A DNA stretch of 43,713 nt from a virus, in the IMG/VR virus record IMGVR_UViG_3300036781_000437, positions 1-43,713 of that record; one strand, written 5' to 3'. The notes under the pieces are model-generated. The model was not told the origin of the DNA. It saw nothing but the letters and a program-made list of their open reading frames with translations, and ran no database searches. The first letter of the stretch is position 1, and each line of letters starts with the position of its first letter. Positions 1 through 43,713 of the stretch are shown one piece after another. A program made the translations under genes and the position numbers.

Positions 1-21
1 CCGTCCGCTCACATTCCGCTC

Positions 22-79
22 GCGGGGGTCCTACCCCGCCGGCGCCGTTGGCCGGACTGGCCGGTGTTGAAGTCCGGCC
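22..79 (-). terminator. Two hairpins after the HNH gene
   Basis: Two stem-loops lie between the window edge and the end of the leftward HNH gene. GGCCGGACT (50-58) pairs perfectly with AGTCCGGCC (71-79), and GCGGGG (22-27) pairs with CCCCGC (34-39). There is no T-run, so a factor-independent terminator is only inferred. If the molecule is circular or has cohesive ends, these stems sit in the junction before the packaging operon and could instead belong to a packaging site. Confidence 0.35.
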
Positions 80-91
80 ACGAGGCTCGCG

Positions 92-397
92 TCAGTTCGG
101 CCGCGACGGCTGCGTCGTCGGCCGCTCCTGCGCCTGGCACTCGGGGCAGAGCGCGAGCAGCTCGTCCGCCCTGGCGAGCTCGGCCGATCCGGTGCGCACG
201 AGCACGCGCACGTGGTGCGCCGACAGCCGAGCCCGCCGACCGCAGCGTTCGCAGTGCCCATCCGCTCGAGCTACCGCGACCGAAGCCAGTCGCCGCCAGC
301 GCCGACCACCGATGCGCCGATGCCGAGCGCAGCGTCCGTCGCGTGAGACGGCGAGCTCGGGGCAGGCCCAGACGGCGCAGATCGTGCGGGCACTCAT
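92..397 (-). CDS. Small HNH endonuclease
   Basis: A 101-residue protein with two Cys pairs and an HNH-like core: a C-x5-C pair near residues 7-13, then a zinc knuckle CERCG near 49-53, 'SAHHV' near 59-63 (candidate first His of the HNH fold), and a C-terminal CPECQ pair. Stand-alone HNH nucleases of this size often sit beside terminase genes in long-tailed phages and assist DNA packaging. If the ends of the window join, this gene lies directly upstream of the ParB/TET/terminase operon, which fits that role. Its ATG overlaps the stop of the preceding hydrophobic frame by ATGA. A homing-type nuclease is the alternative. Confidence 0.7.
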   Translation of the reverse strand: MSARTICAVWACPELAVSRDGRCARHRRIGGRRWRRLASVAVARADGHCERCGRRARLSAHHVRVLVRTGSAELARADELLALCPECQAQERPTTQPSRPN

Positions 398-571
398 CGC
401 TTGGTTGCGAGTGCGATCACGAGCAGGGCCACGAGGAACGCGACGTAGACGAGCGCGACCCCGTCCGACCTAACCCCAGCCGTGGAAGTAGGCGAGCACG
501 AGGAAGATCGCGATCACGACGAGGGCGACGTCGCTGATGCCGATGCTCCACCTCGGGCCGACGGGAGTCAT
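394..571 (-). CDS. Small two-segment membrane protein, apparent frame break
   Basis: An ATG at 571 (ATGA overlap with the gene upstream) opens a 33-residue frame that ends at 470 and carries one hydrophobic helix (IAIFLVLAYF). Immediately after it, in the +1 frame and with no start codon of its own, a second hydrophobic stretch (VALVYVAFLVALLVIALA) runs to a stop at 394-396. That stop overlaps the HNH start by ATGA. The precise spacing and the coupled stop suggest one two-helix protein split by one extra base at the GGGG run (474-477 on +). Function is unknown; a holin-like role is possible but unsupported by context. Confidence 0.45.
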
Positions 572-13051: not shown

Positions 13052-13380
13052 CACTCCTCCTCGGCGCCGTCGAAGAAGACGTCCGAGACGACGAGGCTCT
13101 TCGTCTCCACGATCGCATCGACGTAGCCCTCGGAGTCGCGGCGGTGGCGCTTGCGCGAGCCCGCGACGTGGCAGGTGACGACGAGCTCGGCCTCCTCGCC
13201 CGCCCGCAGGCCGTTGTAGTACTTCACCTGCTGGGCGTTCGTGCGGTCGAGCTCGAGCGAGCCCGAGAACGCGAGCTTGAGCACGCTCGGGTCGGCCTCG
13301 TCCAGGACAACCGCGATCCTCGGCACTTCAAACAGGCGCCCGTCGCCGGGGCTCTGGTCTTCCACTGCGGCCACGCTCAT
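13051..13380 (-). CDS. Conserved hypothetical protein next to exonuclease
   Basis: A 109-residue, strand-rich protein (RIAVVLDEADPSVLKLAFSG, AELVVTCHVAGSRKRHRR, VDAIVETKSLVVSDVFF). The start ATG overlaps the exonuclease stop by ATGA, so it is translated with the nuclease. Mixed beta strands and an acidic end (GAEEE) would suit a small OB-type or inhibitor/accessory fold, but I do not recognise a family. Likely part of the same recombination unit. Confidence 0.6.
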   Translation of the reverse strand: MSVAAVEDQSPGDGRLFEVPRIAVVLDEADPSVLKLAFSGSLELDRTNAQQVKYYNGLRAGEEAELVVTCHVAGSRKRHRRDSEGYVDAIVETKSLVVSDVFFDGAEEE

Positions 13381-14213
13381 GCCTCCTCCTCGTTGGTAGT
13401 GGGCAGCTCCAGCGGCGCCCCGAACACGTGTCGACTGACCTCGCTCTGCCAGCGGGCCGCCTGCTGTACGTGCAGGAACGCCCGCCAGACCCTGTCGTCG
13501 ATCGCCACCGGCACGGCCAGGAAGTCGAAGGGCGAGATGACGATGCAGAGGGCGCCGTCCACCTTCGGCAGCTCCTCGTGCGTCTGGCTCTGGTCGTAGA
13601 GGTAGTAGCGCCCGCGGTTGGAGTAGCGCTGCTCGGCGATCACGCCCACCTCGGTGCAGCGCGAGTAGGCGCAGAGCTGGAGCGCCGTCTCCGGCCACGG
13701 CGGGCGGGCCTTCTCGCCGCCCGGCGGGTGCTCGGTCGTCTTGTAGTCGACGAGCAGCCGGTAGCCGCCGAGCTCGATGATCCCGTCGAGCGTTCCGGCG
13801 TAGCGGCGCTCGATGTTGTAGACCGGCGCCTCGGCGAGCAGGAAGGTCGGCCGGAACTTCTCGATCCAGCGCCGCCCCTGCTCCACGAAGGGCGCGATCT
13901 GCGGCTCGACGCGCGGCTCGGCCCCGAGCGCGATCTCCTCCAGCGCCTTGTGAATGTCGGTGCCGCGAACCTTCGCCTTCTCCGACTTCTTCCAGCGCTG
14001 GTCGGCGAGCCACTTGATCGCGCCCTCGCGGTCGCCGTCGCGGAGCATCGCGTCGACCGTGCCGCGCTTGTCGACCCCGGCGGTCGCGACCTGGTTGACG
14101 ATCCAGTTGATCAGCCCCGGCCCGGTGCCGAGCCCCATCCCGATCAGGGTCGTCACGCTCCAGAGCTGGAGCGGCGCAGCCTGCGGCAGCGGCTCCATCA
14201 GCGGCGAGCTCAC
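13377..14213 (-). CDS. PD-(D/E)XK exonuclease (RecB/Cas4-like)
   Basis: A 278-residue nuclease from GTG 14213 (GTGA overlap upstream). Catalytic features are in order: 'RGTDIHKALEE' with His 88, 'YAGTLDGIIEL' with Asp 143, 'YRLLVDYKTTE' with Asp 156 and Lys 158, and the downstream 'TALQLCAYSRCTEVG' helix with the Q-x3-Y motif. This is the RecB-type nuclease order used by phage exonucleases that resect double-strand ends for annealing-type recombination. It heads the leftward group with two small proteins and, after the pentamer tract, the 227-residue protein. The long N-terminal in-frame extension to 14261 was rejected for the coupled GTG. Confidence 0.8.
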   Translation of the reverse strand: MSSPLMEPLPQAAPLQLWSVTTLIGMGLGTGPGLINWIVNQVATAGVDKRGTVDAMLRDGDREGAIKWLADQRWKKSEKAKVRGTDIHKALEEIALGAEPRVEPQIAPFVEQGRRWIEKFRPTFLLAEAPVYNIERRYAGTLDGIIELGGYRLLVDYKTTEHPPGGEKARPPWPETALQLCAYSRCTEVGVIAEQRYSNRGRYYLYDQSQTHEELPKVDGALCIVISPFDFLAVPVAIDDRVWRAFLHVQQAARWQSEVSRHVFGAPLELPTTNEEEA

Positions 14214-14383
14214 CGCGCCGCCCTCGGCGGCTTCTGGTCGAAGCAGCCCGGACAGAGCCACGGGCCTCGCGACCGAGCTGCGCCGCAGTGCAGCCGCGCT
14301 CCGCAGTCCGAGCAGGCCCGGAAGCCGCGGTAGGCGGCCCAGGCCTTCCAGGCCTGGAGCGCTTGCCGTTCAAGCGTCGTCAC
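14210..14383 (-). CDS. Small zinc-ribbon protein
   Basis: A 57-residue protein that starts at GTG 14383, overlapping the methyltransferase stop (GTGA), and ends in a GTGA overlap with the exonuclease. An N-terminal helix (LERQALQAWKAWAAYRG) precedes two Cys knuckles: CSDCGARLHCG and CPGCFDQKP. This is a compact zinc ribbon. The function is unknown; the position between methyltransferase and nuclease suggests DNA metabolism. Confidence 0.6.
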   Translation of the reverse strand: MTTLERQALQAWKAWAAYRGFRACSDCGARLHCGAARSRGPWLCPGCFDQKPPRAAR

Positions 14384-15329: not shown

Positions 15330-15758
15330 TCACCGCCAGACCCCGAAGTCGTTGCGCAGCGTCTCGACGCGAACGCTCGCGTGCGGCTGGGAGCCGTAGA
15401 GCTTGCGCACGTGCCAGGAGGCAACCTGCGAGTCGTCGCGTACGACGACGCCGGTCATCGCGTCGCCGAGCGCCCGCTGGAGCTTGTCGAGGTCGGGCTT
15501 CGCGCTGTGCCAGATCGGAGCGCTGTCCTTGAGACGCTCGGCGTTGCGGCCGCTGCCGAAGTGGCCCTTCGGCCGCGGGAAGAAGAAGTCGACGATCACG
15601 TTCACCGGGCCGTCGACCGGGCCGTTCGCCATCACCTCGGCGGCGGCCGCCGCGACGCTCTCCCGCCAGCTCTTCACGTGCGGGTTCGCCTCGGCGCCCC
15701 ACGGCATCTTGGAGCCCTGCGGCACGGGCACGCCGGGCACGGTGAAGGTCAGCTCCAC
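15330..15758 (-). CDS. RusA-like Holliday junction resolvase
   Basis: A 142-residue protein with the RusA order: an N-terminal strand 'LTFTVPGVPVPQGSKMPWG', a central 'FFFPRPKGHFGSGRNAERL', then 'KPDLDKLQRALGDAM' and 'GVVVRDDSQVASWHVRKLYG', with the conserved Asp residues that bind metal. RusA enzymes are dimeric nucleases that cut four-way DNA junctions and are common in phage early regions, where they clear branched replication or recombination intermediates before packaging. ATG 15758; its first 10 bases overlap the upstream gene. Length is typical for the family. Confidence 0.85.
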   Translation of the reverse strand: MELTFTVPGVPVPQGSKMPWGAEANPHVKSWRESVAAAAAEVMANGPVDGPVNVIVDFFFPRPKGHFGSGRNAERLKDSAPIWHSAKPDLDKLQRALGDAMTGVVVRDDSQVASWHVRKLYGSQPHASVRVETLRNDFGVWR

Positions 15759-15967: not shown

Positions 15968-16113
15968 CACCGCTCGCGCTCCTTGCGCTCGGCCTCGGCG
16001 AGGGCGCAGCCCTTCGCGTGCGAACAGGCGAGCGTGTTCAGCTCCCACCACGTGCCCGCCCGGCGGCAGACCTGGCAGAGGAGCCATCCGGCCTTGAGCT
16101 CCGTCGAGCTCAC
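15967..16113 (-). CDS. Small zinc-binding protein
   Basis: A 48-residue protein from GTG 16113 (GTGA overlap upstream) to 15967, too short for usual gene calls. It contains CQVCRRAGTWW near 13-23 and 'ACSHAKGCALAEAERKERER' at the end, i.e. C-x2-C plus C-x5-C, a small zinc knuckle with a charged C-terminal helix. Stop and next start overlap by one base (TGATG). Strong third-position GC supports it. Function unknown. Confidence 0.5.
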   Translation of the reverse strand: MSSTELKAGWLLCQVCRRAGTWWELNTLACSHAKGCALAEAERKERER

Positions 16114-16445
16114 CGGCTACCCTCCTCGGGAGGATGGGCGGCGGCCGCCGAGGTCGCCTCCTTTGCGCCGCCGCCCTTCTCCTTCTCCACGACCCTGAGC
16201 CCCTCGGCGGCGCCGTAGCTCTCCTCCGGGTTCTGCCGCTCCCACTCGGCCTCGAGCTCGCCGATCAGGTGGAGCAGGCCCGCGATGCGCTGGAGGCCGA
16301 AGCCTCCGAGCTCGGGACCGGGCGGGGCGAGCGCGGCGGCGGCGAGCTGCCGGTGCTGGTGAGCCACCTCGCGCTTCAACACATCGGCCAGGTAGTCGGG
16401 CCGGAGCCCGAGCGCCTGGCACACCTCCTTCGTGCCCATGCTCAT
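16110..16445 (-). CDS. Hypothetical protein with HTH-like start
   Basis: A 111-residue protein from ATG 16445, preceded by GAGAGGAGC. The N-terminus 'GTKEVCQALGLRPDYLADVL' could be a helix-turn-helix, followed by helices (HQHRQLAAAAL, then LLHLIGELEAEWERQ) and a Lys/Glu/Ala-rich tail. It lies directly downstream of the Rpf-like gene with only 7 bases between them, so they share a transcript. Regulatory function is possible but uncertain. Confidence 0.5.
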   Translation of the reverse strand: MSMGTKEVCQALGLRPDYLADVLKREVAHQHRQLAAAALAPPGPELGGFGLQRIAGLLHLIGELEAEWERQNPEESYGAAEGLRVVEKEKGGGAKEATSAAAAHPPEEGSR

Positions 16446-16452
16446 GCTCCTC

Positions 16453-16818
16453 TCATTGCAGGCAGCCCCAGTAGCCACCAAGGCCGAGCCCGTACTGGGC
16501 GACGCGCATCTGCACGAGCGGCGGCGCCATCCAGGCGTGTGGGTAGCGGGCAGAGAGGCCGAGCGCTCGCGCCCAGGCCCGCCAGGTCGAGGCGGCGAAG
16601 CCGACGCCTCCCTCGTACTCGGTTCCCTCGTTCGGTCGGTGCCTCGCGCCCCAGTCCCAGAGCGCCGGGCCACCGCCTCCCGTCTCGCAGGAGCCGACTC
16701 GCATCCAGAACTGGATCTGTGCCCTGGTGAGCTCGGCCGAAGCTGGCGGCGCCGTCGCGAAGAGCAGCGCGGTCGCCGCGATGACTCCGAGGAGCCACCC
16801 GTGCAGGTGGGTCAGCAT
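16453..16818 (-). CDS. Secreted Rpf/transglycosylase-like muralytic protein
   Basis: A 121-residue protein with a clean signal peptide: 'LLGVIAATALLFATAPPASA' (9-28) with an Ala-x-Ala cleavage site. The mature part follows the resuscitation-promoting-factor fold: 'RVGSCETGGG' with the candidate catalytic Glu, 'YEGGVGFAASTWRAWA' for the Rpf YxGGLQFxxxTW box, and 'APPLVQMRVAQYGL' then 'GGYWGCL' at the end. Rpf enzymes cut peptidoglycan glycan strands and wake dormant actinobacteria. The gene has a perfect AAGGAGGTCGCG site and is first in the leftward early operon beside the integrase promoter, away from the endolysin. It might serve lysis, entry or lysogen physiology. Confidence 0.7.
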   Translation of the reverse strand: MLTHLHGWLLGVIAATALLFATAPPASAELTRAQIQFWMRVGSCETGGGGPALWDWGARHRPNEGTEYEGGVGFAASTWRAWARALGLSARYPHAWMAPPLVQMRVAQYGLGLGGYWGCLQ

Positions 16819-16838
16819 CGCGACCTCCTTGCGTCCAG

Positions 16839-16888
16839 GTGGGAGCGCCCGGGTGCCGAGGGGGGTCCAAGGGGCCGGGCGCTCCCAC
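16839..16888 (-). promoter_or_regulatory. 14-bp stem-loop just upstream of the Rpf-like gene
   Basis: GTGGGAGCGCCCGG (16839-16852) and CCGGGCGCTCCCAC (16875-16888) pair perfectly around 22 bases. In the leftward RNA this stem ends about 20 bases before the Rpf-like ATG and just ahead of its ribosome site. A regulator of translation or early termination is inferred; on DNA it could be an operator. Confidence 0.6.
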
Positions 16889-16905
16889 GTTGAGGCGGGG
16901 AGGAG

Positions 16906-16968
16906 GCCACGGGCACAGCGTCGGAGTCCCGTGGCTGCCGGTTTGCAGCCCACCGCGGAGACAGCCAC
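16906..16968. other. Overlapping inverted repeats in the integrase/Rpf gap; candidate attP region
   Basis: GCCACGGG (16906-16913) pairs with CCCGTGGC (16928-16935), but the same GTGGC also begins GTGGCTG (16931-16937), which pairs with CAGCCAC (16962-16968). The two stems exclude each other. The 38-bp symmetric element 16931-16968 is of a size and place (directly upstream of a serine integrase) that would suit attP. No core could be proved. The gap 16819-17146 otherwise holds no gene. Confidence 0.4.
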
Positions 16969-17030
16969 ACGTTGCAGGCCGCCTCCGAGCTGCATGTCTA
17001 CGCCGGGCCGGACTCCTCCCCACGCACAGC

Positions 17031-17055
17031 GAAGGCCGCCGGAGGGGCGGCCTTC
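17031..17055. terminator. Hairpin upstream of integrase promoter
   Basis: GAAGGCCGCC (17031-17040) and GGCGGCCTTC (17046-17055) form a 10-bp perfect stem with a 5-base loop. The + side continues GGGCTTCTAC, a weak pyrimidine tail. It would insulate the integrase promoter from upstream transcription, or act in the leader of the divergent Rpf operon. Confidence 0.55.
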
Positions 17056-17104
17056 GGGCTTCTACAGGCTGACGGGCTTTAGCGCTCGGCGCTGTTGCGC
17101 CCGC

Positions 17105-17110
17105 TATAAT
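17105..17110 (+). promoter_or_regulatory. Integrase promoter -10 (TATAAT)
   Basis: A perfect TATAAT in a GC-rich region, 37 bases before the integrase ATG and followed by AAGGAGGCGACC. No good -35 at 16-18 bp is visible, so an activator may be needed. This is the best -10 match noticed in the window. Confidence 0.6.
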
Positions 17111-17146
17111 AGAGCCTCCAAGAGAGAAGCAACCAAGGAGGCGACC

Positions 17147-18529
17147 ATGCAAGGCACCGAACCGAAGAGCTCGAGCAGGCGGCGAGCCGTCATCTACGTC
17201 CGCGTCAGCCGCAAGGGCAAGCGCGGCGGCGACAGCTACATCACCGAGGACGTGCAGGTACAGACCTGCGAGGCCTACGCGAAGGGGAAGCGCATCCGCG
17301 TCGTCGGCACCTTCACCGACGTCAACCGCTCGGGCAAGAACGCGGCCCGGCCGGGCCTCCAGGAGGCGCTCGGGATGCTGGAGCGCGGCGAGGCGGACAC
17401 GCTGATCGTCGCCCGGCTCTCGCGCTTCGCTCGCTCGGTCAAGGACACCGCGATCCTGCTGGACGAGATGCAGGGCTGGGGCGCTTCGCTCGTCGCCTGC
17501 GACATCGACATCGACACGAGCACGCCGATCGGCAAGCTCGTCCGCCAGCTCCTCGCGGCCTTCGCCGAGCTGGAGCTGGAGCTCGCCCGGGAGAAGTGGG
17601 AGGAGGCTCGCTCGCACGCCGAAGACCGCGGCGTCTACCTGCGCAAGGCGCCTCCCGGCTACCGCAAGAACGGCGGCCGGGAGCTCGTCCGCGACGAGGC
17701 CGTCGCGCCGCTCGTGGAGGCGCTCTTCGCCGACCGGGCGGCGGGCGTCTCCTGGGCCGAGCTGCTCCGGCGCTGGGAGAGGGGCGGCGGCCCGAAGATC
17801 AGTCGGCAGGGCCTGACGACGATCGTCGGCAACCGCGAGTACCTCGGCGACCCGCACGAGGCGATCGTCACCGTCGAGCAGTTCGACGCGGCGCAGGCCG
17901 TGAAGGCGCCGCGGCCGTGGCGCAGTCGGAACGGCTCGCTCCTCGCGGGCGTGCTCGTCTGCTCGGTCAGCGGCGAGCCGATGACCTCGGCGGGCGCAGA
18001 CCCGCGGCGCGGCCGGAGCCTCTACCGCTGTCAGCCGGGCGCCTGCAAGGGGCACCGCCAGACGGTCACCGCGGAGCTCGTCGACCGCTGCGTCGAGGAG
18101 CAGCTCCTCGCCTGGGCGGGCGAGGTCACGCTGGAGGGCACGGCCAACGGGGAGGGCGGGCTGATCGCCGCCGCCCGCGAGCGGGAGTCCGCCGAGGCCG
18201 AGCTGGCCGCCTACGTCATCCATGCCGCAGCCTTGGATGCCAAGGTGTTCCAGCTCGGACTCGACGCCCGGCAGGCCCGCGTCGACGAAGCCGTCGATGC
18301 AGAGGCCCGGCTCAGGTCTGAGCGCCGGGTAGGGAACGTGCGCGTCCGGCTCGCCGAGGTCTGGCCGGAGCTCTCGACCGAGGAGCGCCGCCAGCTCCTG
18401 ATGCAGGCCGTTGAGCGAGTCGAGGTCAAGCCCTCAACCCGCCGCGGCCTCGGCAGCTACACGACCGAGGAGCAGCGCCAGGACGCGATCTGCGAGCGCC
18501 TCCGGGTCGTCTTCCGCTCGGACGTCTGA
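17147..18529 (+). CDS. int: Large serine recombinase (phage integrase)
   Basis: A 460-residue recombinase. The N-terminal catalytic domain (about 12-150) has 'VIYVRVSRKG' with the nucleophile Ser 21, 'LIVARLSRFARSVKD', and the later Arg-containing 'PIGKLVRQLLAAFAELELEL' E-helix. The recombinase domain follows (about 155-260, 'KAPPGYRKNGG...GLTTIVGNREYLGDP'), then a zinc-ribbon region (about 265-305) and a coiled coil (about 340-400). The zinc ribbon is atypical: the first knuckle reads CSVSG where CxxCG is normal, while later Cys remain (YRCQPGACKG). It catalyses attP x attB integration; excision would need the Gp3-like factor at 9584. The last 96 bases overlap the convergent gene at 18434. 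Confidence 0.92.
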   Translation: MQGTEPKSSSRRRAVIYVRVSRKGKRGGDSYITEDVQVQTCEAYAKGKRIRVVGTFTDVNRSGKNAARPGLQEALGMLERGEADTLIVARLSRFARSVKDTAILLDEMQGWGASLVACDIDIDTSTPIGKLVRQLLAAFAELELELAREKWEEARSHAEDRGVYLRKAPPGYRKNGGRELVRDEAVAPLVEALFADRAAGVSWAELLRRWERGGGPKISRQGLTTIVGNREYLGDPHEAIVTVEQFDAAQAVKAPRPWRSRNGSLLAGVLVCSVSGEPMTSAGADPRRGRSLYRCQPGACKGHRQTVTAELVDRCVEEQLLAWAGEVTLEGTANGEGGLIAAARERESAEAELAAYVIHAAALDAKVFQLGLDARQARVDEAVDAEARLRSERRVGNVRVRLAEVWPELSTEERRQLLMQAVERVEVKPSTRRGLGSYTTEEQRQDAICERLRVVFRSDV

Positions 18530-18836: not shown

Positions 18837-19232
18837 ATGGAGAAGGCTGCGGCAAGCCTCGGGCCTGTCAACGACGGCCCGGATGAGATGAACTCGTCGG
18901 TGGGCGAGCGCCTACGCGAGGCCCGCCGGGCGGCGGGCCTGAACCAGCGCGAGGCGGCGGCCGAGCTCGGCGTCACCCGGCGCTCGATCTACGAGTGGGA
19001 GACCGACGTGCGCCTGCCTCACTCGGCCCTGCCCGCGCTGGCCGTGCTCTACGGCACGAGCGTCACGCAGCTCCTCTACGGCGTCGATCCTGCGAGCGAG
19101 GAACTGGTGGCTCTCCGCACCGAGGTCGGGGTGCTGGCACAGCTCGTGGTCGACCTGGCCGCGGCGACGGAGGCGGGCTTCGCAGAGCTTCGGCGGCTCG
19201 TAGAGGAGCTCCTGCGCGGAGATGACTCGTAG
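18837..19232 (+). CDS. Cro/CI-type helix-turn-helix regulator
   Basis: A 131-residue protein. Residues about 20-80 form an XRE/HTH_3 domain: 'VGERLREARRAAGLNQREAA', 'AELGVTRRSIYEWETDVRLP', 'ALPALAVLYGTSVTQLLYG'. The C-terminal 45 residues form a leucine-rich coiled coil (LVALRTEVGVLAQLVVDLAA...) for dimerisation. No peptidase domain, so it is shorter than LexA-type repressors. It starts at ATG 18837 behind GGGAGGCGACC (a start at 18891 is possible). Its place after the integrase and its own operator-like repeats make it the likely lysogeny regulator. Confidence 0.8.
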   Translation: MEKAAASLGPVNDGPDEMNSSVGERLREARRAAGLNQREAAAELGVTRRSIYEWETDVRLPHSALPALAVLYGTSVTQLLYGVDPASEELVALRTEVGVLAQLVVDLAAATEAGFAELRRLVEELLRGDDS

Positions 19233-19352: not shown

Positions 19353-19451
19353 CTCAAATCGGAGCGGGGAGCCTACTCGCTTGAGCTCCCCAGTAGTGGG
19401 GCCGCCGGACTGCGGTTAGCGCTCGGAGCGAGAAGTTTGGGACCAAAGACA

Positions 19452-19859: not shown

Positions 19860-20326
19860 GCGAGCGCCTGGAGCGAGAAGATGAGCTGTTCGCGACTCGC
19901 GCCGACGGTGGAGACGACGAGCGTCCCGACCACGTTCGCGTAGATGCCGGTGCCGCCGATCACGACGAGCTGGTAGAAGGAGCGCGTCCGGAGGATGCCC
20001 TGGGCGAGGAGCGTGCCCTGCGGGAGGGAGTAGCTTCCCGAGCACCAGCTCGTGCCGCCGCCGCGGACGCCGCCCGAGCCGAGGAAGGTGCAGGCGAGGA
20101 TGGAGCTCCCGAGCGCCTCGCCGCGATTGGAGAGCCGAGCGGTGTAGACGGTCACGCCGCCGAGCTTGGTCGCCCTCGGCGAGGCCGAGAGGTCGGCCTG
20201 CGACACGCGAACGGTCGAGAGGCCGGGCGAGAGCCCGGAGGCCGCCGGCGCGAGAGCGAGCGCCAGGAGTGCGGCGGCGACGACGATCCACGATCCACGA
20301 TCCACGATCCTTAGATCGTGCTTCAT
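19856..20326 (-). CDS. Secreted dirigent/allene-oxide-cyclase-barrel-like protein
   Basis: A 156-residue protein with a signal peptide after a short basic start (WIVVAAALLALALAPAASG, cleavage near residue 35). The mature strand-rich part has 'ILACTFLGSGG', 'SYSLPQGTLLAQGILRTRSF' and 'YQLVVIGGTGIYANVVGTLV'. The 'GGTGxYxxxxGxL' element with preceding 'LPxGTLxxxG' recalls the eight-stranded allene oxide cyclase/dirigent barrel found in actinobacterial secreted proteins. Its overlap with the next gene is ATGA. The start codon region contains a 7-bp repeat. A phage role at the end of the lysis module is unclear; it may act outside the cell or in the envelope. The fold call is moderate. Confidence 0.5.
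   Translation of the reverse strand: MKHDLRIVDRGSWIVVAAALLALALAPAASGLSPGLSTVRVSQADLSASPRATKLGGVTVYTARLSNRGEALGSSILACTFLGSGGVRGGGTSWCSGSYSLPQGTLLAQGILRTRSFYQLVVIGGTGIYANVVGTLVVSTVGASREQLIFSLQALA
20283..20310. repeat. 7-bp tandem repeat ACGATCC x4
   Basis: Four perfect copies of ACGATCC on + (GGATCGT on -) lie inside codons 6-15 of the secreted barrel gene. Since 7 is not a multiple of 3, loss or gain of one copy shifts the frame before the signal peptide. Confidence 0.9.
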
Positions 20327-20670
20327 CGGAGCGCCGCCTGCTCGGCCTTGACGCAGGGCGCCCGGTTCTGCATCACGGTGATGTAGCCGCGGAACACGTC
20401 GATCGTCACCTCGCGCTCTTGGGAGAAGCCCTCGGCCACCTGCTCGGTCTGGAGCAGGTAGGCGGCCTGGGCGGTCAGCGCCTGGAGGACGGCGTTCGTG
20501 CTGCACAGGAAGGCGATCGCCTCGGTGTTCGCCTTCGTCTGCGCGTTGACCCGATCGATCGTGTCGTTCAGCCGGGCGTTGAGCACGAACAGCCAGACGG
20601 CGATCCCTGCGAGCACGGCCCAGCCGACGAGGGAGTAGAAGCGCCAGTCGTCGAGGATGCGCCGGATCAC
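20323..20670 (-). CDS. Membrane-anchored coiled-coil protein of the lysis region
   Basis: A 115-residue protein from GTG 20670 with the site GAGGAGGCGGC. Residues about 14-32 are a transmembrane helix (LVGWAVLAGIAVWLFVLNA), followed by a long helix (RLNDTIDRVNAQTKANTEAI). Two Cys (about 52 and 108) could pair. Position two genes after the endolysin suggests a holin partner or Rz-like envelope protein. No direct family match. Start set by the site rather than by the longer in-frame extension. Confidence 0.6.
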   Translation of the reverse strand: MIRRILDDWRFYSLVGWAVLAGIAVWLFVLNARLNDTIDRVNAQTKANTEAIAFLCSTNAVLQALTAQAAYLLQTEQVAEGFSQEREVTIDVFRGYITVMQNRAPCVKAEQAALR

Positions 20671-20891
20671 GCCGCCGCCTCCTCTTCCTTCTTGGCGGCT
20701 CCGGCCACGAGCCGGGCCGCCTGCGGGAAGCCGAGCATCGTCATCGCGGTGCCGACGAGGAGCGGATCGGGGCTGCCGGGCGTCAGCGTCTCGTGGATGA
20801 GAATCCACACGCCGAGCACCGTGAGGATGAGGTCGCGGGAGATCCGCGTCCAGGAGCGAACCGTCGCCTCACGGCTTCGCTTCGCCGTCAT
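20667..20891 (-). CDS. Holin-like small membrane protein
   Basis: A 74-residue protein: basic N-terminus (TAKRSREATVRSW), one strong transmembrane helix (LILTVLGVWILIHETL) and a second hydrophobic segment (PLLVGTAMTMLGFPQAARLV), ending in a Lys/Glu tail (KKEEEAAA). Two short helices with a charged end behind the endolysin gene are typical of phage holins. A neighbouring gene at 20869 has the same character, so the pair may be holin and antiholin. The start ATG 20891 lies inside the previous gene by 23 bases. Confidence 0.6.
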   Translation of the reverse strand: MTAKRSREATVRSWTRISRDLILTVLGVWILIHETLTPGSPDPLLVGTAMTMLGFPQAARLVAGAAKKEEEAAA

Positions 20892-21195
20892 CGGCGGGCT
20901 GGCTCTTGCCGCTCCAGATGCGATTGATCGTGCCCTTGATCCCGGTCCGGCCAACGAACAGGACGACGACCGTTGCGCCTCCGGCGATCGCGATCCCGGC
21001 CTCGGGCGAGAGGTCGACGCCCGCCAGCCCGAGCAGCCAGACGACGGCCGTGCCGGTGATCAGCGTGCCTCCGGCGGCGACGGTGTTCGGGTGCTGGGCG
21101 ACGAGCGTCTTCGCCTTCGGCTTCGGCGGCGGCTTCGGCTTCGCCCTCGGCGGCGGCTTCGCCCTCGAGCTCGGCGGTGGCGGCGTCGCCATCAC
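20869..21195 (-). CDS. Holin-like protein with Pro/Lys-rich N-terminus
   Basis: A 108-residue protein. The first 30 residues are a Pro/Lys/Arg tail (AKPPPRAKPKPPPKPKAK), followed by two transmembrane helices (TLITGTAVVWLLGLAGV and AGIAIAGGATVVVLFVGRTG) and a short basic end. It starts at GTG 21195 or ATG 21192 in overlap with the endolysin stop, so it is co-translated with the endolysin. Two transmembrane helices plus a charged tail fit a holin, which would let the CHAP endolysin reach the wall. Confidence 0.65.
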   Translation of the reverse strand: MMATPPPPSSRAKPPPRAKPKPPPKPKAKTLVAQHPNTVAAGGTLITGTAVVWLLGLAGVDLSPEAGIAIAGGATVVVLFVGRTGIKGTINRIWSGKSQPADDGEAKP

Positions 21196-22121
21196 GCCAC
21201 CCGCACGAAGGTCGTCGCCTGGCCGGTGGTCGAGCGCTGGCGCCGCATGACTTCGCCGCCATTGGAGTTGTTGTCGACGGAGGTGTTGCCTTCGATCGCC
21301 GTGAAGGCCGAGCCGCTCGTCCAGGCTTCGAACAGCCCGACGTGGTCATAGGTGCCGTCGCGGCCCCAGTCGTAGCAGACGAGGTCGCCCGGCATCACGG
21401 AGCTCGGGACGCTCAAGCCGTTCCGATGCTGTCGAGCGTCGTTGACGATGTAGGGGACGTAGGCGTAGCTCTGGCCCTTGGCGAAGGAGGGCGAGCCGCC
21501 CGCGTCGACCTCGTAGCAGTAGCTCGCGAACATGGCGCACCACGGCTGCCCATCGCCTCCGTACCAGGCGCCGAACTTCGTCTTGTTCGACCCGGCCGGG
21601 CTCTCCTTGACGCCGAGGTAGGTGATCGCGGCGGCGAGCGCCCGCTGGCGGGTGGTCTGGCCGGAGGGCGGCGCAGGCGGGATCGGCGCGGGCTCCTGCC
21701 CGCCGTAGAGCTGCCAGGCCTGGGCGATCAGGTTGGCCGCGTTCGCGTCCATCGCCATCTCGCCCTGGTGCGACCCGGTCGGGACGCGAATCGAGCGGAG
21801 GGTGTTGAAGGTCGCCTGGCCGACCCAGCCGGTGGTCGGCTCGACCTTCTGCTGGCGCTGCACCCCGGCGATCCCGGACTGGGCCACGTTGCCGCCCGAG
21901 CCGTGCGCGAAGCCGTTGGAGTAGGTGCGGTCGAAGGCCGAGGCGGGGCCGGGCCAACGCCCAGCTCGCCAGACCGTCCGCTTGTAGGCCTCGACGTCCG
22001 GGCCGTCGGCGCTCGGCGTCTTCCCCTGCTTCGCCGCGTCGGGTGGGTAGAGCGGTCGCGGGAAGCCGGGCACGGCGACCATCGGGCCGCCCTTGTAGGG
22101 CTCGTCCCACCAGTCGGTCAT
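21192..22121 (-). CDS. Endolysin with C-terminal CHAP domain
   Basis: A 309-residue protein without a signal peptide. The N-terminal half (about 1-125) is a peptidoglycan-binding-type module ('GPDVEAYKRTVWRAGRWPGP' then 'EPTTGWVGQATFNTLRSI', the PG-binding repeat). A Pro-rich linker (about 143-155) leads to a CHAP amidase/endopeptidase: 'LGVKESPAGSNKTKFGAWYG', catalytic Cys in 'GQPWCAMFASYCYEVDAG', 'MPGDLVCYDWGRDGTYDHVG' with the His, and 'FTAIEGNTSVDNNSNGG'. It is the main lysis enzyme, followed by holin-like genes. Stop overlaps the next start. Family length typical for actinophage endolysins. Confidence 0.85.
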   Translation of the reverse strand: MTDWWDEPYKGGPMVAVPGFPRPLYPPDAAKQGKTPSADGPDVEAYKRTVWRAGRWPGPASAFDRTYSNGFAHGSGGNVAQSGIAGVQRQQKVEPTTGWVGQATFNTLRSIRVPTGSHQGEMAMDANAANLIAQAWQLYGGQEPAPIPPAPPSGQTTRQRALAAAITYLGVKESPAGSNKTKFGAWYGGDGQPWCAMFASYCYEVDAGGSPSFAKGQSYAYVPYIVNDARQHRNGLSVPSSVMPGDLVCYDWGRDGTYDHVGLFEAWTSGSAFTAIEGNTSVDNNSNGGEVMRRQRSTTGQATTFVRVA

Positions 22122-32776: not shown

Positions 32777-34081
32777 TCAGGCCGCGACCGCGGGCAGAGC
32801 CTCGTTCACAGCCACCTTGACGATCTCGATCAGCACCCACTCGGCGAACGGGCTCATCCGCACGCCGATGACCGCGTGCAGCTCGCCGTTCGCGATCGTC
32901 GCGGGCGTGTTGATGCTGGAGCCGGTGTCGACGTAGAAGGCGTCCGCGGGCGTCGCGCCGTAGAGGGCGTCCTCGTTGTAGTAGGCGAGCAGCATCCCGG
33001 ACAGGTCGCCGTTGAAGTCCGAGAGCGTGTGCCCGCGCCCGTCGAGCTGCGAGAAGACGTAGTTCTCGCCGATCGCCTCGGCCTGCGCGACGATGCCCAT
33101 GTTCAGGCGGGCATTGCCGAAGTCGAGCCAGGCCGGGGTGGCGACCGGGTCGACGCAGCTCCGGTAGCCGTAGGTGCGGACGCCGCCGTAGATCAGCCGG
33201 GCCATGTTGACGCCGCTGTCGTTCAGCATCTGGTAGTCGGAGTCGGAGTAGCGGCCGTTCAGGTCGAGCGCGTAGACGGCCTGCCCGAGGACGCCGGCGG
33301 CCGCGATGTTCGGGTTGTAGGAGGCGTCGTTGCGGGCGATGATGCCCGCCTCGACCGCGGCGTAGGGCACGGTGCGCTGGGTTCCGGCGACGACGCCGGG
33401 CACGAGCGCGGAGGGAGCGAAGAGCGCCGCGTAGCGCCCGTTCGCGTCGGTCTGGAGGGCGAGCCCGGCGCCCTTGAGCGCAGCCGAGTCGCCGTCGGCG
33501 CAGGAGAGCAGGGCGACGCGGTTGGTCGCGGCGCAGTGGGCCGTGAGGGCGCTCTGGTTGTCGGCGACGGCGGCCTTGGCCGGGTCGGCGAGGAACACCT
33601 GGCCGGGGCCGAGGTCCTTCGTCAGCGCCGCCAGGGCGGCGGCGATGCCCGTGTCGACGGCCGTCGGGCTGGCGGCGAGGTGATCCTCGACCGCCGTGAG
33701 CTCCTCGGCCTTCGTGCCGTAGTCGGCCGGGTTGAGCCCGTAGGAGACGGCGAGCACGTCGAGCTCGGCGCGGGTCATCGCCTCCAGCTCGGCCGTCGTC
33801 GGCGCCGTCTGCACGCCGACGGTCATCCCGCCGGTCGGGTTGGTCGGCGCGACGTAGAGCTTGGCGCCGCCCTCCCGGAAGTAGGTGTCGGCCGCGTCGT
33901 AGGTGGCGTTGCCTGCGCCCGAGCGGTCGCCGAAGGCCGCGACGTACTCGGTCATCGAATGGACGAGCTGGTAGAGCGGGCCTTGCACGGTGTCGCCGAC
34001 GACGAAGGCGACTCCTGTGTCGGTGGGTGCGGACCGTGGCGGTGGAAGCGCACGCGAGATGACGTCGACTCCAGGCCTCAT
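32777..34081 (-). CDS. Tail sheath protein
   Basis: A 434-residue protein. The N-terminal strand 'VDVISRALPPPRSAPTDTGV' followed by 'AFVVGDTVQGPLYQLVHSMT' and 'YFREGGAKLYVAPTNPTGGM' is the standard sheath start (the GP-x-xGP/x-x-V domain). The C-terminal half has 'RYAALFAPSALVPGVVAGTQ', 'NMARLIYGGVRTYGYRSCVD' and 'GIVAQAEAIGENYVFSQLDG', then a basic end. The sheath contracts to drive the tube through the wall. It identifies the phage as a myovirus type. ATG 34081 shares its last base with the previous stop. Confidence 0.92.
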   Translation of the reverse strand: MRPGVDVISRALPPPRSAPTDTGVAFVVGDTVQGPLYQLVHSMTEYVAAFGDRSGAGNATYDAADTYFREGGAKLYVAPTNPTGGMTVGVQTAPTTAELEAMTRAELDVLAVSYGLNPADYGTKAEELTAVEDHLAASPTAVDTGIAAALAALTKDLGPGQVFLADPAKAAVADNQSALTAHCAATNRVALLSCADGDSAALKGAGLALQTDANGRYAALFAPSALVPGVVAGTQRTVPYAAVEAGIIARNDASYNPNIAAAGVLGQAVYALDLNGRYSDSDYQMLNDSGVNMARLIYGGVRTYGYRSCVDPVATPAWLDFGNARLNMGIVAQAEAIGENYVFSQLDGRGHTLSDFNGDLSGMLLAYYNEDALYGATPADAFYVDTGSSINTPATIANGELHAVIGVRMSPFAEWVLIEIVKVAVNEALPAVAA

Positions 34082-34761
34082 CAGTCCTCCTCTCCTGTGG
34101 GTAGCGGGTCGGTGCCGTAGTTGATGACGTGCTCTTCGTGGGTCTGGACGAGCGGCCAGGGCGCCCACGGATCGACGCTCGGCGGGTCGGGTAGCAGCGG
34201 CCCGGCGTTCGCCGAGGCGACGTCCTCGACCTCGACGGTGAAGTGGGCCTGCCCCGAGCTCAGGGAGCGCGAGTCGTCGTAGACGAGGTCGTCGTAGCGC
34301 TCGTCCAGCCAGACCGTCCCGTGCGCGTGGCCGTCGAGCGAGGGCCGCTGGATGATGAGTGTGCGCACGGCGGCGACGTAGTCGAGCGCCATCTCGTGCG
34401 CCTCCTCCTGGTAGCGGGCCGAGCAGACGCAGCCGAAGCCCATCACCCACCAGCACTGGTAGCGCCCGTCGCCCCGCTTGCGGGGCGGCGTCGCCTGCCC
34501 GGCCGAGGCCATGACGATGCGCGGGAGCTGGTCTTCGGGCCACTGGTCGAAGCTCGCCGTGCGGACGAAGGAGCGCGGCCGGGCGTAGTGGAGCTGCGGG
34601 AGCCCGTGCTGACGCTCGACCTCGGCCAGGTAGGTCGAAGTCCAGCGCTTGAGCAGGGCGATGCACCAGTCCTCGACGTCGGAGCCGGTGACGATCCGGC
34701 CGAAGATCGAGTCGGGGTCGGGGTTGAGCTCGCCGACCGGGTCGGAGACTGGCGCACTCAC
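34081..34761 (-). CDS. Tail terminator-like / neck protein
   Basis: A 226-residue protein from GTG 34761 (GTGA overlap). Features: 'EDWCIALLKRWTSTYLAEVE', 'LPRIVMASAGQATPPRKRGD', 'CWWVMGFGCVCSARYQEEAH' and 'IIQRPSLDGHAHGTVWLDER', i.e. a mixed fold with a central sheet, similar to proteins at the neck of contractile phages located before the sheath. It probably joins head to tail or caps the tube. Family assignment is by position and shape. Confidence 0.6.
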   Translation of the reverse strand: MSAPVSDPVGELNPDPDSIFGRIVTGSDVEDWCIALLKRWTSTYLAEVERQHGLPQLHYARPRSFVRTASFDQWPEDQLPRIVMASAGQATPPRKRGDGRYQCWWVMGFGCVCSARYQEEAHEMALDYVAAVRTLIIQRPSLDGHAHGTVWLDERYDDLVYDDSRSLSSGQAHFTVEVEDVASANAGPLLPDPPSVDPWAPWPLVQTHEEHVINYGTDPLPTGEED

Positions 34762-37949: not shown

Positions 37950-39449
37950 CTACTGCGGTGGTGGTGGCCCGCCGGCGGCGCCGGTTGGCGGCGTCCCGGC
38001 CGGGGCGGGAGTCGGCTCGCCCGTTGGGGCGGCGGCCGTCTGCGACGCCGTGGTCGACTGGAGCATCTCGCGGGCCGTCGCGGCCTGGGCCTGGGCGGCG
38101 GCCACGAGCTCGGCCTCCCGGGCCGACTCGGCGAGCGCCTCCATCTCGGTGATCTGCTCGGGCGTGTAGCCGAGCTCCAGCCAGATCACCGGCAGCGGCA
38201 CGCCGAGCGTCCGCTTCTTGACGGCCGCATCGACGAGCTGGCCCTGCGCGATCCGCTCCGGGTTGGCCCAGATCGCCTCGCACTCGGCCGTCTCGACGGC
38301 CGTGCCGGAGGCCTGGAGCGCGAGCGCCATCGCCTCCTCCCAGGGGTCGGAGAAGAAGAGCGTCTTCGACCGGCACTTCGACACGAGCCCGGCCTCGGCC
38401 ACCGAGAGCGCGTCGCCGCTCATGTTCACGAGCTTGGCGAGCAGGTAGTGCGGCGGCGTCCGCGTCTGGGCGGCGAGGTGGGTCACGAACATCTCGATCG
38501 CGTTGACGAAGTTGGAGAGGTCGGCCGCGGCCAGGTCGGTCACGCGGGCGTCGGCGGGCTTGAACGTCCAGAGGCGGCTCATCGCCGCCTTCATCTCGGC
38601 CTGCGCGAGCGGCTGGCCCGTCTCCGGGTCCTTCGGCACCTCGACCCCGGTCACGACCCGCTGCGGGAAGGCGCCGTACTCGCTCGTCACGATCATGTCG
38701 GTGCAGAGCTTGTTGATCGCGTTCTGGAGCGGGATCGCGGGCTCCAGGTCGGAGTGGGCCACGCCGAGCACGCCCGGCTTGTTCTCCAGCGGGATCACCG
38801 GCACGACGCCGAGCGGGTTGCTCACCTCGGCGAGCTCGCCCGAGCGCGGCACCCAGACCGTCTCGCCGAGGCGAGCTCGAGGAGCGTCGACCGACTCGGC
38901 GCTCTCGTACTTGAGCACGACGTCGGGCAGGTAGAGCGTCAGGTACTGGAAGCCGTCGTCGCCGAGCCAGCGCTTCGCGGCGGCGAGCCGGTGGCGCCGG
39001 TTGGCCGGGTCGTGCGCGACGATCACCTGCGAGGCGTGCTCGACGGTGATCAGCGGCTCGCCCTCGTTCGGGTCGACGAGCAGGAAGGCCCGCCCGTTCT
39101 TGCCCGCCTCGGTGTGCGCGATCACGCTCTCGACGTCGAGCCCGTTCGCCTGCCAGAGCGCCCAGGCCTCGTCGGCCACCTTCTCGTTCACCCGGAAGCC
39201 GACCACGCGCAGCCGCTCGACGGCGGCGTCGACCACGATCTGGCACCAGTTGTCGGCGAAGGCCGAGAAGAGGGCGCCGAAGGCCTCGCGGAACTTGGAC
39301 GTCGCGAACTGGAGCGGGTGGCGCCCGTCGTAGTAGCTCTCGTAGAACTCGGCCTCCAGGGCGCGGTGGTCGAGCTGCGGGAGCAGGAAGCCCCGCCAGT
39401 CTTCGGGCGTGCGCTGGGCCTCGCGTGGGAGGCGGGCGACTGTACTCAC
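37950..39449 (-). CDS. Portal protein
   Basis: A 499-residue protein from GTG 39449 (GTGA overlap with the terminase). Pattern of SPP1 gp6-type portals: 'YYDGRHPLQFATSKFREAFG' (clip/stem start), 'VVDAAVERLRVVGFRVNEKV', 'VVPVIPLENKPGVLGVAHSD', 'LQNAINKLCTDMIVTSEYGA' (stem helix), 'RTPPHYLLAKLVNMSGDALS' and a Pro/Ala-rich tail. It forms the dodecameric channel for DNA packaging and joins the head to the adaptor. The long in-frame opening upstream to 40646 is antisense of terminase and was rejected. Confidence 0.9.
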   Translation of the reverse strand: MSTVARLPREAQRTPEDWRGFLLPQLDHRALEAEFYESYYDGRHPLQFATSKFREAFGALFSAFADNWCQIVVDAAVERLRVVGFRVNEKVADEAWALWQANGLDVESVIAHTEAGKNGRAFLLVDPNEGEPLITVEHASQVIVAHDPANRRHRLAAAKRWLGDDGFQYLTLYLPDVVLKYESAESVDAPRARLGETVWVPRSGELAEVSNPLGVVPVIPLENKPGVLGVAHSDLEPAIPLQNAINKLCTDMIVTSEYGAFPQRVVTGVEVPKDPETGQPLAQAEMKAAMSRLWTFKPADARVTDLAAADLSNFVNAIEMFVTHLAAQTRTPPHYLLAKLVNMSGDALSVAEAGLVSKCRSKTLFFSDPWEEAMALALQASGTAVETAECEAIWANPERIAQGQLVDAAVKKRTLGVPLPVIWLELGYTPEQITEMEALAESAREAELVAAAQAQAATAREMLQSTTASQTAAAPTGEPTPAPAGTPPTGAAGGPPPPQ

Positions 39450-40906
39450 AGGAAGGCGTACTCCCCTCGGTCGAGCTCGCTCGCCGCGATCGCATCGCAG
39501 CGGGCCTCGTAGGCCAGGACGGCGGCGACGGCCGCATCGATCTTCTCGGCGGCGGCTCCCTTGTCGAGCCAGTAGCCGCCGCGCACCTCGCGCATCTGGG
39601 CGTTCAGGACGTGCCGCGTGAGCACCTCCGAGCCCGTGTGCGGGATGCCCTCGCCGAGCAGATCGGTGCGGAAGCGCTCGACGGCGCCCATGAAGCGCGA
39701 GCGGTTGGTCGGGTAGCGCGTGACGGCCGGGTCGCCGTACTCCCTCGCCCAGCCGTCGATCTCGCTCTGCCAGAGTGGCGGGTCGAAGTAGCCGCGGACG
39801 ACGGCGTACTCCTCCATCGCCTCGGCGATGGCCCGGTCGACCTCGCCCGTGGGCACCTCCCAGGCGCCGCCTCCTCGCGGTGCCTCCCAGACGCCGAGCG
39901 GCTGGAGCAGGCCGTCCTCCAGGCGACAGGCAACGAGCGCCGTCGAGTCGCCGTAGCGGGAGCCGTCGAAGCCGAGGGCGATCTTGTCGCCGGGCTCGAG
40001 CTCCTCGGTCGCCGCGGCCAGGTGCCAGATGTCGGGCGCCATCCAGAGCCCGCCCGCCCCGGTCCAGATGCCGCAGACGAAGCGGCGCCACTCCCACGGC
40101 AGCGTCGAGGGCGAGTCGTGCGCCTGCGCGAGCTTCTCGACCGTCTGCCAGCTCGCGGGGTTCACCTCCTTCACGAGCTCGATCGAGTCCGGGTCGTCTT
40201 CGGCGTCGAGCGCCCACTCGTGCAGGGCGAAGCCGTTGTCGAGGCTGCGGGCGTAGGTGTAGCGGCCCTCGCGCTCCAGGTGCGGGAGCTGGTAGGCGGC
40301 CTGGCGCGTGTGCCCGAGCGGGCTCGTGACGCTCTCGCCCGCGACGGAGATGGCGACCATCTGCCCGTCGCGCGGGCCGAGTCCGTGCCGGAAGATCGCG
40401 TAGAGCTCGGCCGAGCGGTGGCGCCCGAGCTCGTCGACCAGGGCGAGCGTCGGGATGATGCCGTCGGCCGTGTCGACGTCCGCCGCGAGCACCCGGATGC
40501 GGCCCGAGTCGCGGCGGCTGCGGATCTGCCGGTAGCCACCCTTGACGACCACCCGGCGCTGGAGGAACTCGGACCGCTTGACGAAGCCGGAGGCCTGCTC
40601 GTAGAGGATCGAGGCCTGGTCGCGCGAGGTGGCCCCGATCACGCACTCGGCGTCGCCCGTGGTGATCAGGTGGTAGAGGGCGAGGGCGCCGAGGAGGGTG
40701 GTCTTGCCGTTCTTCTTCGACAGGAGGACGAGCGTCTCGACCACACCCGCGAAGTAGTCGGCGAGCATCCGCCGCTGGAAGGGCTCCAGCTCCATCGCCT
40801 TGCCGTTCTCCAGCGTGAGCGCCTGGCAGAAGCGGGAGAAGCCGTCAAGAGCTGCGGCGGACTCGGCGCTCGGCGAGCTCGTCGAACTCGGTGAACGGGT
40901 CGTCAT
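39446..40906 (-). CDS. terL: Terminase large subunit
   Basis: A 486-residue packaging ATPase/nuclease. ATPase part: 'VVETLVLLSKKNGKTTLLGA' (Walker A variant, KKNGKTT), 'CVIGATSRDQASILYEQASG', 'IPTLALVDELGRHRSAELYA' (Walker B VDELG). Nuclease part (about 310-470): 'GDKIALGFDGSRYGDSTALV' with a metal-binding Asp, 'VRGYFDPPLWQSEIDGWARE' and 'EKIDAAVAAVLAYEARCDAI' with the final Asp. The class cannot be read alone; the nearby HNH gene would fit cos packaging. ATG 40906 lies 62 bases inside the small-subunit gene. Confidence 0.93.
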   Translation of the reverse strand: MTTRSPSSTSSPSAESAAALDGFSRFCQALTLENGKAMELEPFQRRMLADYFAGVVETLVLLSKKNGKTTLLGALALYHLITTGDAECVIGATSRDQASILYEQASGFVKRSEFLQRRVVVKGGYRQIRSRRDSGRIRVLAADVDTADGIIPTLALVDELGRHRSAELYAIFRHGLGPRDGQMVAISVAGESVTSPLGHTRQAAYQLPHLEREGRYTYARSLDNGFALHEWALDAEDDPDSIELVKEVNPASWQTVEKLAQAHDSPSTLPWEWRRFVCGIWTGAGGLWMAPDIWHLAAATEELEPGDKIALGFDGSRYGDSTALVACRLEDGLLQPLGVWEAPRGGGAWEVPTGEVDRAIAEAMEEYAVVRGYFDPPLWQSEIDGWAREYGDPAVTRYPTNRSRFMGAVERFRTDLLGEGIPHTGSEVLTRHVLNAQMREVRGGYWLDKGAAAEKIDAAVAAVLAYEARCDAIAASELDRGEYAFL

Positions 40907-43548: not shown

Positions 43549-43569
43549 GCTTGCCTCCTTGGTCTAAGC

Positions 43570-43658
43570 TCGGCCCGCGGCCGAGCTGCGCTCACCGCAG
43601 CTCGGACGGAGCAAGGCCCGAGGGGCGGGCGACCAATAGGCGGTCGCCCCTCGGGGCC
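43570..43658. other. Three consecutive palindromes upstream of the operon
   Basis: CTCGGCC/GGCCGAG (about 43570-43586), GAGCTGCG/CGCAGCTC (about 43584-43603), and a long GGCCCGAGGGGCG...GACC / GGTCGCCCCTCGGGGCC pair (43615-43658, with a 3-base bulge and 7-base loop). They fill the leader of the leftward operon that starts at 43548. They could be operators, a terminator of the preceding transcript, or packaging-site hairpins. Confidence 0.55.
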
Positions 43659-43681
43659 TATTCGCGCCGCTCGCAGGTTCC

Positions 43682-43703
43682 GCGCGTTTTGCGCACTTTT
43701 TTT
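43682..43703 (+). terminator. Weak hairpin with T-run at the right end
   Basis: GCGC-GTTTT-GCGC (43682-43694) followed after two bases by seven T (43697-43703). As read on +, this is terminator-like but the stem is short; on - the A-run could serve as an upstream promoter element for the leftward operon. Confidence 0.35.
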
Positions 43704-43713
43704 CGCGGGAAGG

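What the first reader, a model, noticed from the sequence alone, without database searches (positions are those of the whole stretch)
16453..17055. Secreted Rpf-like protein with a heavily structured leader beside the integrase
A phage gene for a secreted resuscitation-promoting-factor-like muralytic protein stands at the head of the early leftward operon, not with the lysis genes. Its 5' region holds a 14-bp stem next to the ribosome site, two mutually exclusive stems and another 10-bp hairpin. The phage might wake dormant hosts or remodel the wall in lysogens, under RNA-based control.
Basis: partly seen in the sequence, partly recalled or inferred. Interest (0 to 1): 0.7.

Follow-up and report, generated by a model that had tools for sequence, protein, structure and literature searches.

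The report
Phage wall-enzyme gene beside attachment site
A soil phage of actinobacteria carries a secreted enzyme gene related to bacterial 'wake-up' factors at the front of its early genes; the striking hairpin in front of it looks mainly like the DNA site the phage uses to insert into its host, so insertion itself would unplug the gene from its control region.

Summary
Confirmed: window 16453-16818 (-) encodes a 121-aa protein with a Sec-type signal peptide and one Rpf-type catalytic domain (profile vs RpfB 1e-13; predicted fold clearly hits only Rpfs, Z 7.2-9.2; catalytic Glu kept). Its nearest relatives are chromosomal genes of two Thermoleophilia genomes (55-57% identity). It heads the leftward early operon, away from the CHAP endolysin. 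It belongs to a large group: 161 soil-virus contigs encode relatives, mostly beside terminase, DNA polymerase III, serine integrase or DnaB genes rather than lysis genes.

Reinterpreted: the 14-bp 'stem next to the ribosome site' is an even-centred 50-bp dyad, the strongest in 43.7 kb. It has the geometry of a serine-integrase attP; the same scan recovers the known phiC31 and Bxb1 attPs. It is absent before 72 homologues. If it is attP, integration cuts the rpf operon from its only upstream -10-like element.

RNA control remains possible but single-genome: a 141-nt fold ranks 2nd of 618 windows, and an anti-Shine-Dalgarno strand has two exclusive partners (2 of 300 shuffles do as well). No Rfam match, no homologue. 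Muralytic activity, resuscitation, integration and expression are untested.

The parts
16453..16818 (-). secreted Rpf-domain protein, 121 aa (signal peptide about residues 1-28; catalytic Glu at residue 45)
   Evidence: PF06737 E 0.012, below the curated cut-off; profile of 24 homologues finds RpfB at 1e-13; model pLDDT 74.5 matches RpfB/E/C at Z 7.2-9.2, next fold 3.6; host homologues 57% and 55%
16824..16830 (-). Shine-Dalgarno AAGGAGG of rpf
   Evidence: sequence
16839..16888 (.). putative attP of the serine integrase: 50-bp dyad, arms 16839-16852 / 16875-16888, centre 16863|16864; edge 20 nt from the rpf start codon
   Evidence: strongest dyad of the window; same scan finds known phiC31 and Bxb1 attPs
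16889..17029 (-). candidate structured RNA of the leftward leader, multibranch fold closed by 17010-17021 / 16897-16908
   Evidence: MFE -80.4, z -3.6 to -4.2 on the minus strand, -0.96 on the plus strand; rank 2 of 618 windows
16897..16908 (-). anti-Shine-Dalgarno strand with two exclusive partners
17010..17021 (-). competing strand that occupies the anti-Shine-Dalgarno strand
17030..17056 (+). 11-bp hairpin, possibly a weak rightward terminator that shields int from read-through (inference)
   Evidence: no good U-tract on either strand, and not listed by the terminator scan
17104..17112 (.). palindromic CTATAATAG, the only TANNNT sites of the gap on either strand: possible divergent -10 elements for int (+) and the rpf operon (-)
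   Evidence: no good -35 hexamer
17147..18529 (+). large serine integrase, 460 aa
   Evidence: PF00239 2.5e-34; phrog_95 1.8e-68
18837..19232 (+). HTH repressor-like protein downstream of int
   Evidence: PF13560 3.7e-10; phrog_8 5.9e-12
16110..16442 (-). next gene of the early operon, 10 nt after rpf, no family
15330..15758 (-). RusA-like resolvase of the early operon
   Evidence: phrog_140 2.3e-33
13377..14261 (-). exonuclease of the early operon
   Evidence: phrog_298 9.6e-29
21192..22121 (-). the phage's CHAP endolysin, in the late arm and not beside rpf
   Evidence: PF05257 2.2e-9; phrog_21825 2.4e-29

Best explanation
The gene is a host-derived, secreted peptidoglycan-cleaving enzyme of the Rpf type, the first gene of the early leftward operon of a temperate contractile-tail phage that probably infects Thermoleophilia. 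Made in infected cells and exported by Sec, it would nick the wall from outside, loosening it or stimulating growth of a slow or starved host cell (inferred). The 14-bp hairpin is mainly a DNA element, the 50-bp attP of the divergent serine integrase. In circular or replicating phage DNA a leftward transcript (putative start near 17100) reads through the leader and attP into rpf. After integration at the centre of attP, int, the promoter region and the structured leader stay at one prophage end, while rpf and the early operon lie at the other end behind host DNA. Integration itself would therefore disconnect the operon from its promoter and leader. Shown: gene, fold family, operon place, dyad and its geometry. 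Inferred: that the dyad is attP, where transcription starts, and what the enzyme does to the host.
For: Rpf domain: (catalytic Glu and GG invariant). Homologues in 161 viral contigs, 77 of the 80 kept with a strongly hydrophobic N-terminal stretch. In relatives G003, G004, L111, L112, L134 and L100 a homologue is likewise divergent from a serine integrase. attP: strongest dyad of the genome, even centre, arms at +-12 to +-25; the same scan recovers known phiC31 and Bxb1 attPs and attP-like dyads by the integrases of Berrie, GardenState and Maja; relatives G009 and L111 have 48-50-bp dyads just upstream of int, and G004 and L112 share a homologous dyad. Literature on imperfect inverted repeats around a core dinucleotide: PMC5937489. 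Stem absent before 72 homologues. Only 20 nt separate attP from the start codon, so the native promoter must lie beyond attP; the only -10-like site does. Host class: homologues in 52 of 249 Thermoleophilia genomes.
Against: No integrated copy of this phage was found, so no attL, attR or attB confirms the site. attP would lie 258 bp from int, further than in phiC31 or Bxb1. No strong dyad was found beside int of G003 or L134. The leader also carries RNA features that attP does not explain. The leftward promoter is only a -10-like hexamer without a clear -35. PF06737 alone is below its cut-off. The signal peptide was judged by eye and hydropathy, not by a dedicated predictor. Host assignment is indirect.
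Confidence: 0.6

Rival explanations
1. One reading: the leader is an RNA device. The 141-nt junction holds strand 17010-17021 against the anti-Shine-Dalgarno strand 16897-16908; when the junction opens, that strand extends the 14-bp hairpin and masks the Shine-Dalgarno, shutting rpf off. It may act together with attP.
For: Minus-strand z -3.6 to -4.2, plus strand -0.96, rank 2 of 618 windows; blocking the distal strand raises pairing of the anti-SD strand with the SD from 0.01 to 0.85; 2 of 300 shuffles meet the switch criteria.
Against: No Rfam match, no homologue by covariance model in relatives or 249 genomes, no exact core in viral contigs, no strong hairpin before homologous genes. Other windows, including coding ones, reach z -3.5 to -4.5. 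The SD is only 0.35 unpaired even in the 'on' state. The test was post hoc.
Confidence: 0.25
2. Lysogenic conversion: rpf sits at the prophage end and is expressed from a host promoter next to attB, changing the lysogen's wall, growth or resistance to superinfection.
For: rpf is the gene nearest the putative attP; its closest relatives are chromosomal host genes.
Against: It is tightly joined to recombination and replication genes that a lysogen should keep silent; homologues in other phages sit beside terminase or polymerase genes without attP.
Confidence: 0.2
3. The protein is a second lysis enzyme that helps the CHAP endolysin from outside the membrane.
For: Muralytic fold and export signal; 27 of 80 homologues lie beside a terminase gene, and 11 of 80 have a CHAP or amidase gene within about 3 kb.
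Against: In this phage it is 4.4 kb away, on the other side of int, in the early operon; 10 homologues lie near DNA polymerase III and 5 near DnaB.
Confidence: 0.15
4. The 50-bp dyad is an operator for the HTH repressor 18837-19232 rather than attP.
For: It lies in a divergent control region next to a repressor gene.
Against: Single copy; 14-bp arms 22 nt apart fit attP better than a dimer operator; no motif was convincingly shared with other gaps.
Confidence: 0.12

Closest known systems
Actinobacterial resuscitation-promoting factors (RpfB/RpfE/RpfC catalytic domain, PF06737)
   Same: Fold, catalytic Glu, conserved GG/W/Q positions, secretion signal
   Different: Phage-borne, single minimal domain with no room for further domains, insert between the CETGG and YEGG motifs; PF06737 score below cut-off
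phrog_29757 'transglycosylase' (phage family)
   Same: Best PHROG for the window protein and its viral homologues
   Different: Window protein matches weakly (E 0.007); the wider group and its gene neighbourhoods were collected here
Rpf-like and peptidoglycan-hydrolase motifs in mycobacteriophage tape-measure proteins (Barnyard, TM4; PMC1796659)
   Same: Phage use of Rpf-type wall enzymes; the TM4 motif helps infect stationary-phase cells
   Different: Those are virion parts acting at entry; this is a separate secreted protein encoded with early genes
Serine-integrase attP sites of phiC31 and Bxb1
   Same: About 50 bp, even-centred imperfect dyad beside int, found by the same scan
   Different: Here 258 bp from int and 20 nt from the start codon of the divergent operon
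Integration-dependent immunity of mycobacteriophage BPs (PMC4557955)
   Same: The place of attP would make integration change expression of an adjacent gene
   Different: There attP lies inside the repressor gene; here it lies in the leader of the early operon
ydaO-yuaA riboswitch (reported in other actinobacteria upstream of rpf genes; from general knowledge)
   Same: Structured leader upstream of an rpf gene
   Different: No match to the Rfam model at any threshold used

Membership tests
Rpf / transglycosylase-like catalytic domain | Significant profile match | tested here: met
   Alignment of 24 homologues vs PDB: RpfB 1e-13. The single sequence vs PF06737 is below cut-off, E 0.012
Rpf / transglycosylase-like catalytic domain | Rpf fold | tested here: met
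   Top six structural matches are all Rpfs, Z 7.2-9.2, next 3.6; model confidence moderate, pLDDT 74.5; Foldseek itself E 0.21-0.54
Rpf / transglycosylase-like catalytic domain | Catalytic glutamate | tested here: met
   E45 invariant in 24 homologues and aligned with the CE motif of RpfE and RpfB
Rpf / transglycosylase-like catalytic domain | Secretion signal | tested here: met
   By eye, with an AxA site; 77 of 80 homologues have a strongly hydrophobic N-terminal stretch; no signal-peptide predictor available
Rpf / transglycosylase-like catalytic domain | Muralytic and resuscitating activity | not testable with these tools
   needs assay
Large serine integrase attP | Adjacent to a serine integrase gene | tested here: met
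   int at 17147-18529, PF00239 2.5e-34
Large serine integrase attP | About 50-bp even-centred dyad around a core dinucleotide | tested here: met
   positive controls
Large serine integrase attP | attL/attR junctions in a lysogen, shared core with attB | tested here: inconclusive
   No integrated relative found in 399 genomes
Large serine integrase attP | Integrase binding and recombination | not testable with these tools
   needs assay
ydaO-yuaA riboswitch | Match to the Rfam model | tested here: not met
   none at gathering score or E up to 10
Integration-dependent immunity (BPs type) | attP inside the repressor gene | tested here: not met
   putative attP 16839-16888, repressor-like gene 18837-19232
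Phage lysis cassette member | Placed with endolysin and holin genes | tested here: not met
   endolysin 21192-22121, 4.4 kb away across int

The most novel reading that the evidence does not exclude
attP is built into the 5' leader of the early operon, between its promoter plus a structured anti-Shine-Dalgarno RNA and its first gene, a secreted Rpf enzyme. Integration thus acts as a physical switch that removes both promoter and RNA control from the lytic operon, and excision restores them.
Probability: 0.3. Interest if true: 0.75.

Novelty: new variant of a known kind. Interest (0 to 1): 0.5.

Why it matters
Rpfs wake or stimulate slow-growing actinobacteria, and soil is full of such cells. 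A widespread group of secreted Rpf-domain proteins in soil phages, encoded with replication, packaging or integration genes rather than lysis genes, makes it directly testable whether phages prime or wake hosts they need to be growing. If attP really sits between promoter and operon, it is a second route, besides truncation of the repressor gene, by which integration itself controls phage genes.

Tried and rejected
Rfam search of the whole window and of the leader at E up to 10: nothing relevant; Rfam on 16 host loci with homologues: only a tRNA. Close relatives of the rpf or int protein in viral contigs by single-protein search: none. Annotated phages: no DNA match, no significant rpf protein match. 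Covariance model of the 141-nt fold: only the window itself. Exact search for the dyad and two RNA cores in viral contigs: none. Leader DNA in 399 Thermoleophilia genomes: none. Repressor-operator repeats between control regions: a partial 12-15 bp match near 19415, at chance level. Literature: no paper in the held library links viral Rpf genes to soil; this shows only absence from that library. Reading the longer ORF to 16995 as the gene was rejected because it would bury the signal peptide. The 17030-17056 hairpin as a leftward terminator was rejected for lack of a U-tract.

Full report
WHAT WAS CHECKED. The window is a 43,713-base virus record of a temperate phage with a contractile tail: large terminase 39446-40906 (-), sheath 32777-34666 (-), tape measure, CHAP endolysin 21192-22121 (-), serine integrase 17147-18529 (+), HTH repressor-like gene 18837-19232 (+). 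The gene in question is 16453-16818 (-), the first gene of a tight leftward operon that continues with a RusA-like resolvase, an exonuclease and a primase/helicase-like gene.

THE PROTEIN. On its own it scores below the curated cut-off of PF06737 (E 0.012). Its closest relatives were found in Thermoleophilia genomes at 57% and 55% identity (G115, G225), in shared chromosomal neighbourhoods without phage genes in the fetched flanks. An alignment with 23 viral homologues finds M. tuberculosis RpfB at 1e-13. The glutamate at residue 45 is invariant and falls on the catalytic CE motif. A model with moderate confidence (pLDDT 74.5) matches only Rpf catalytic domains clearly (Z 7.2-9.2, next 3.6). 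The secreted Rpf-like protein is therefore real. Activity is not shown.

THE WIDER GROUP. Thirteen related contigs were found by terminase. In the closest relative, G003, and in G004 a homologous secreted protein also lies divergent from the serine integrase. G012 and G010 carry one in the early region without a serine integrase beside it. G009 has instead a DPBB (lytic transglycolase) protein in that operon. A scan with three of these proteins found 161 viral contigs, of which 80 were kept with 69 distinct domains. Within the fetched flanks, 27 lie near a terminase gene, 10 near DNA polymerase III, 8 near ThyX, 6 near a serine integrase, 5 near DnaB, and 11 within about 3 kb of a CHAP or amidase gene. 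About a fifth of sampled Thermoleophilia genomes (52 of 249) encode the same family, mostly one copy each. Thermoleophilia are thus the likely hosts; the best terminase match in named genomes is also a Solirubrobacteraceae MAG (39%; lineage).

THE HAIRPIN AS attP. The 14-bp stem with its 22-nt spacer makes a 50-bp even-centred dyad whose arms run from 12 to 25 bases either side of the centre. It is the strongest dyad in the window by three scores. The same scan applied to phages with known sites recovers the phiC31 and Bxb1 attPs, and finds similar dyads beside the serine integrases of Berrie, GardenState and Maja. Relatives L111 and G009 have 48-50-bp dyads just upstream of int, and G004 and L112 share a homologous one; G003 and L134 gave no strong candidate. 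No comparable stem stands before 72 homologous genes. Terminators also score in such scans, but they have short loops, whereas this dyad has a 22-nt centre. PMC5937489 describes serine-recombinase sites as imperfect inverted repeats, often under 50 bp, around a core dinucleotide. The identification remains an inference: no lysogen was found.

CONSEQUENCE. Only 20 nt separate the dyad from the rpf start codon, too little for a promoter. The only -10-like hexamers of the gap lie at 17104-17112, on the integrase side. If the dyad is attP, integration must separate rpf and the operon from that region. Comparable logic, with attP inside the repressor gene, is known from mycobacteriophage BPs (PMC4557955).

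WHAT attP DOES NOT EXPLAIN. The 141 nt between attP and the second hairpin fold far better on the minus strand than shuffles (z -3.6 to -4.2), second of 618 windows, and not on the plus strand. In the computed ensemble the strand 16897-16908 pairs with 17010-17021, and with the Shine-Dalgarno when that partner is removed; 2 of 300 shuffles do as well. No homologue of the fold was found, so no covariation test is possible. The switch test was designed after seeing the sequence.

HOW IT MOST LIKELY WORKS. Early in infection or after excision, the operon is read through attP and the enzyme is exported to loosen or stimulate the host wall (inferred). TM4 shows that wall-active motifs in tape-measure proteins help infection of stationary-phase cells (PMC1796659), and host rpf genes rise during infection of Rhodococcus by phage WC1 (PMC10986025). 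Both are analogies, not evidence for this protein.

VERDICT. A confirmed gene of a known enzyme family in an unusual and recurrent phage setting, with its main 'RNA' feature more likely a DNA integration site: new variant of a known kind.

Noticed in passing
L039 10412-11125 (-): Relative G009 carries, in the operon divergent from its serine integrase, a protein with an N-terminal hydrophobic stretch and a DPBB lytic-transglycolase domain instead of an Rpf-type one: possible functional replacement at the same place.
   Followed up: partly
L106, L108, L110, L136, L137, L139, L143: In larger phages the secreted Rpf-like gene sits between DNA polymerase III alpha and HU or ThyX genes.
   Followed up: partly
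L151-L180: About a fifth of sampled Thermoleophilia genomes hold the same secreted family, mostly as a single copy; its cellular role is unknown.
   Followed up: no
window 42111-42986 (-): Queuine tRNA-ribosyltransferase-like gene near the terminase end (phrog_6059, 3.1e-42).
   Followed up: no
window 1-568 and 43548-43713: Gene order compared with G003 suggests the record is circularly permuted; no terminal repeat of 15 or more bases.
   Followed up: partly
window 16043-16183: Most extreme fold z-score of all 141-nt windows (-4.54 on +, -3.88 on -), at the overlap of small early genes.
   Followed up: no
window 20323-21195 (-): Small proteins with hydrophobic stretches just after the endolysin, possible holins.
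   Followed up: no
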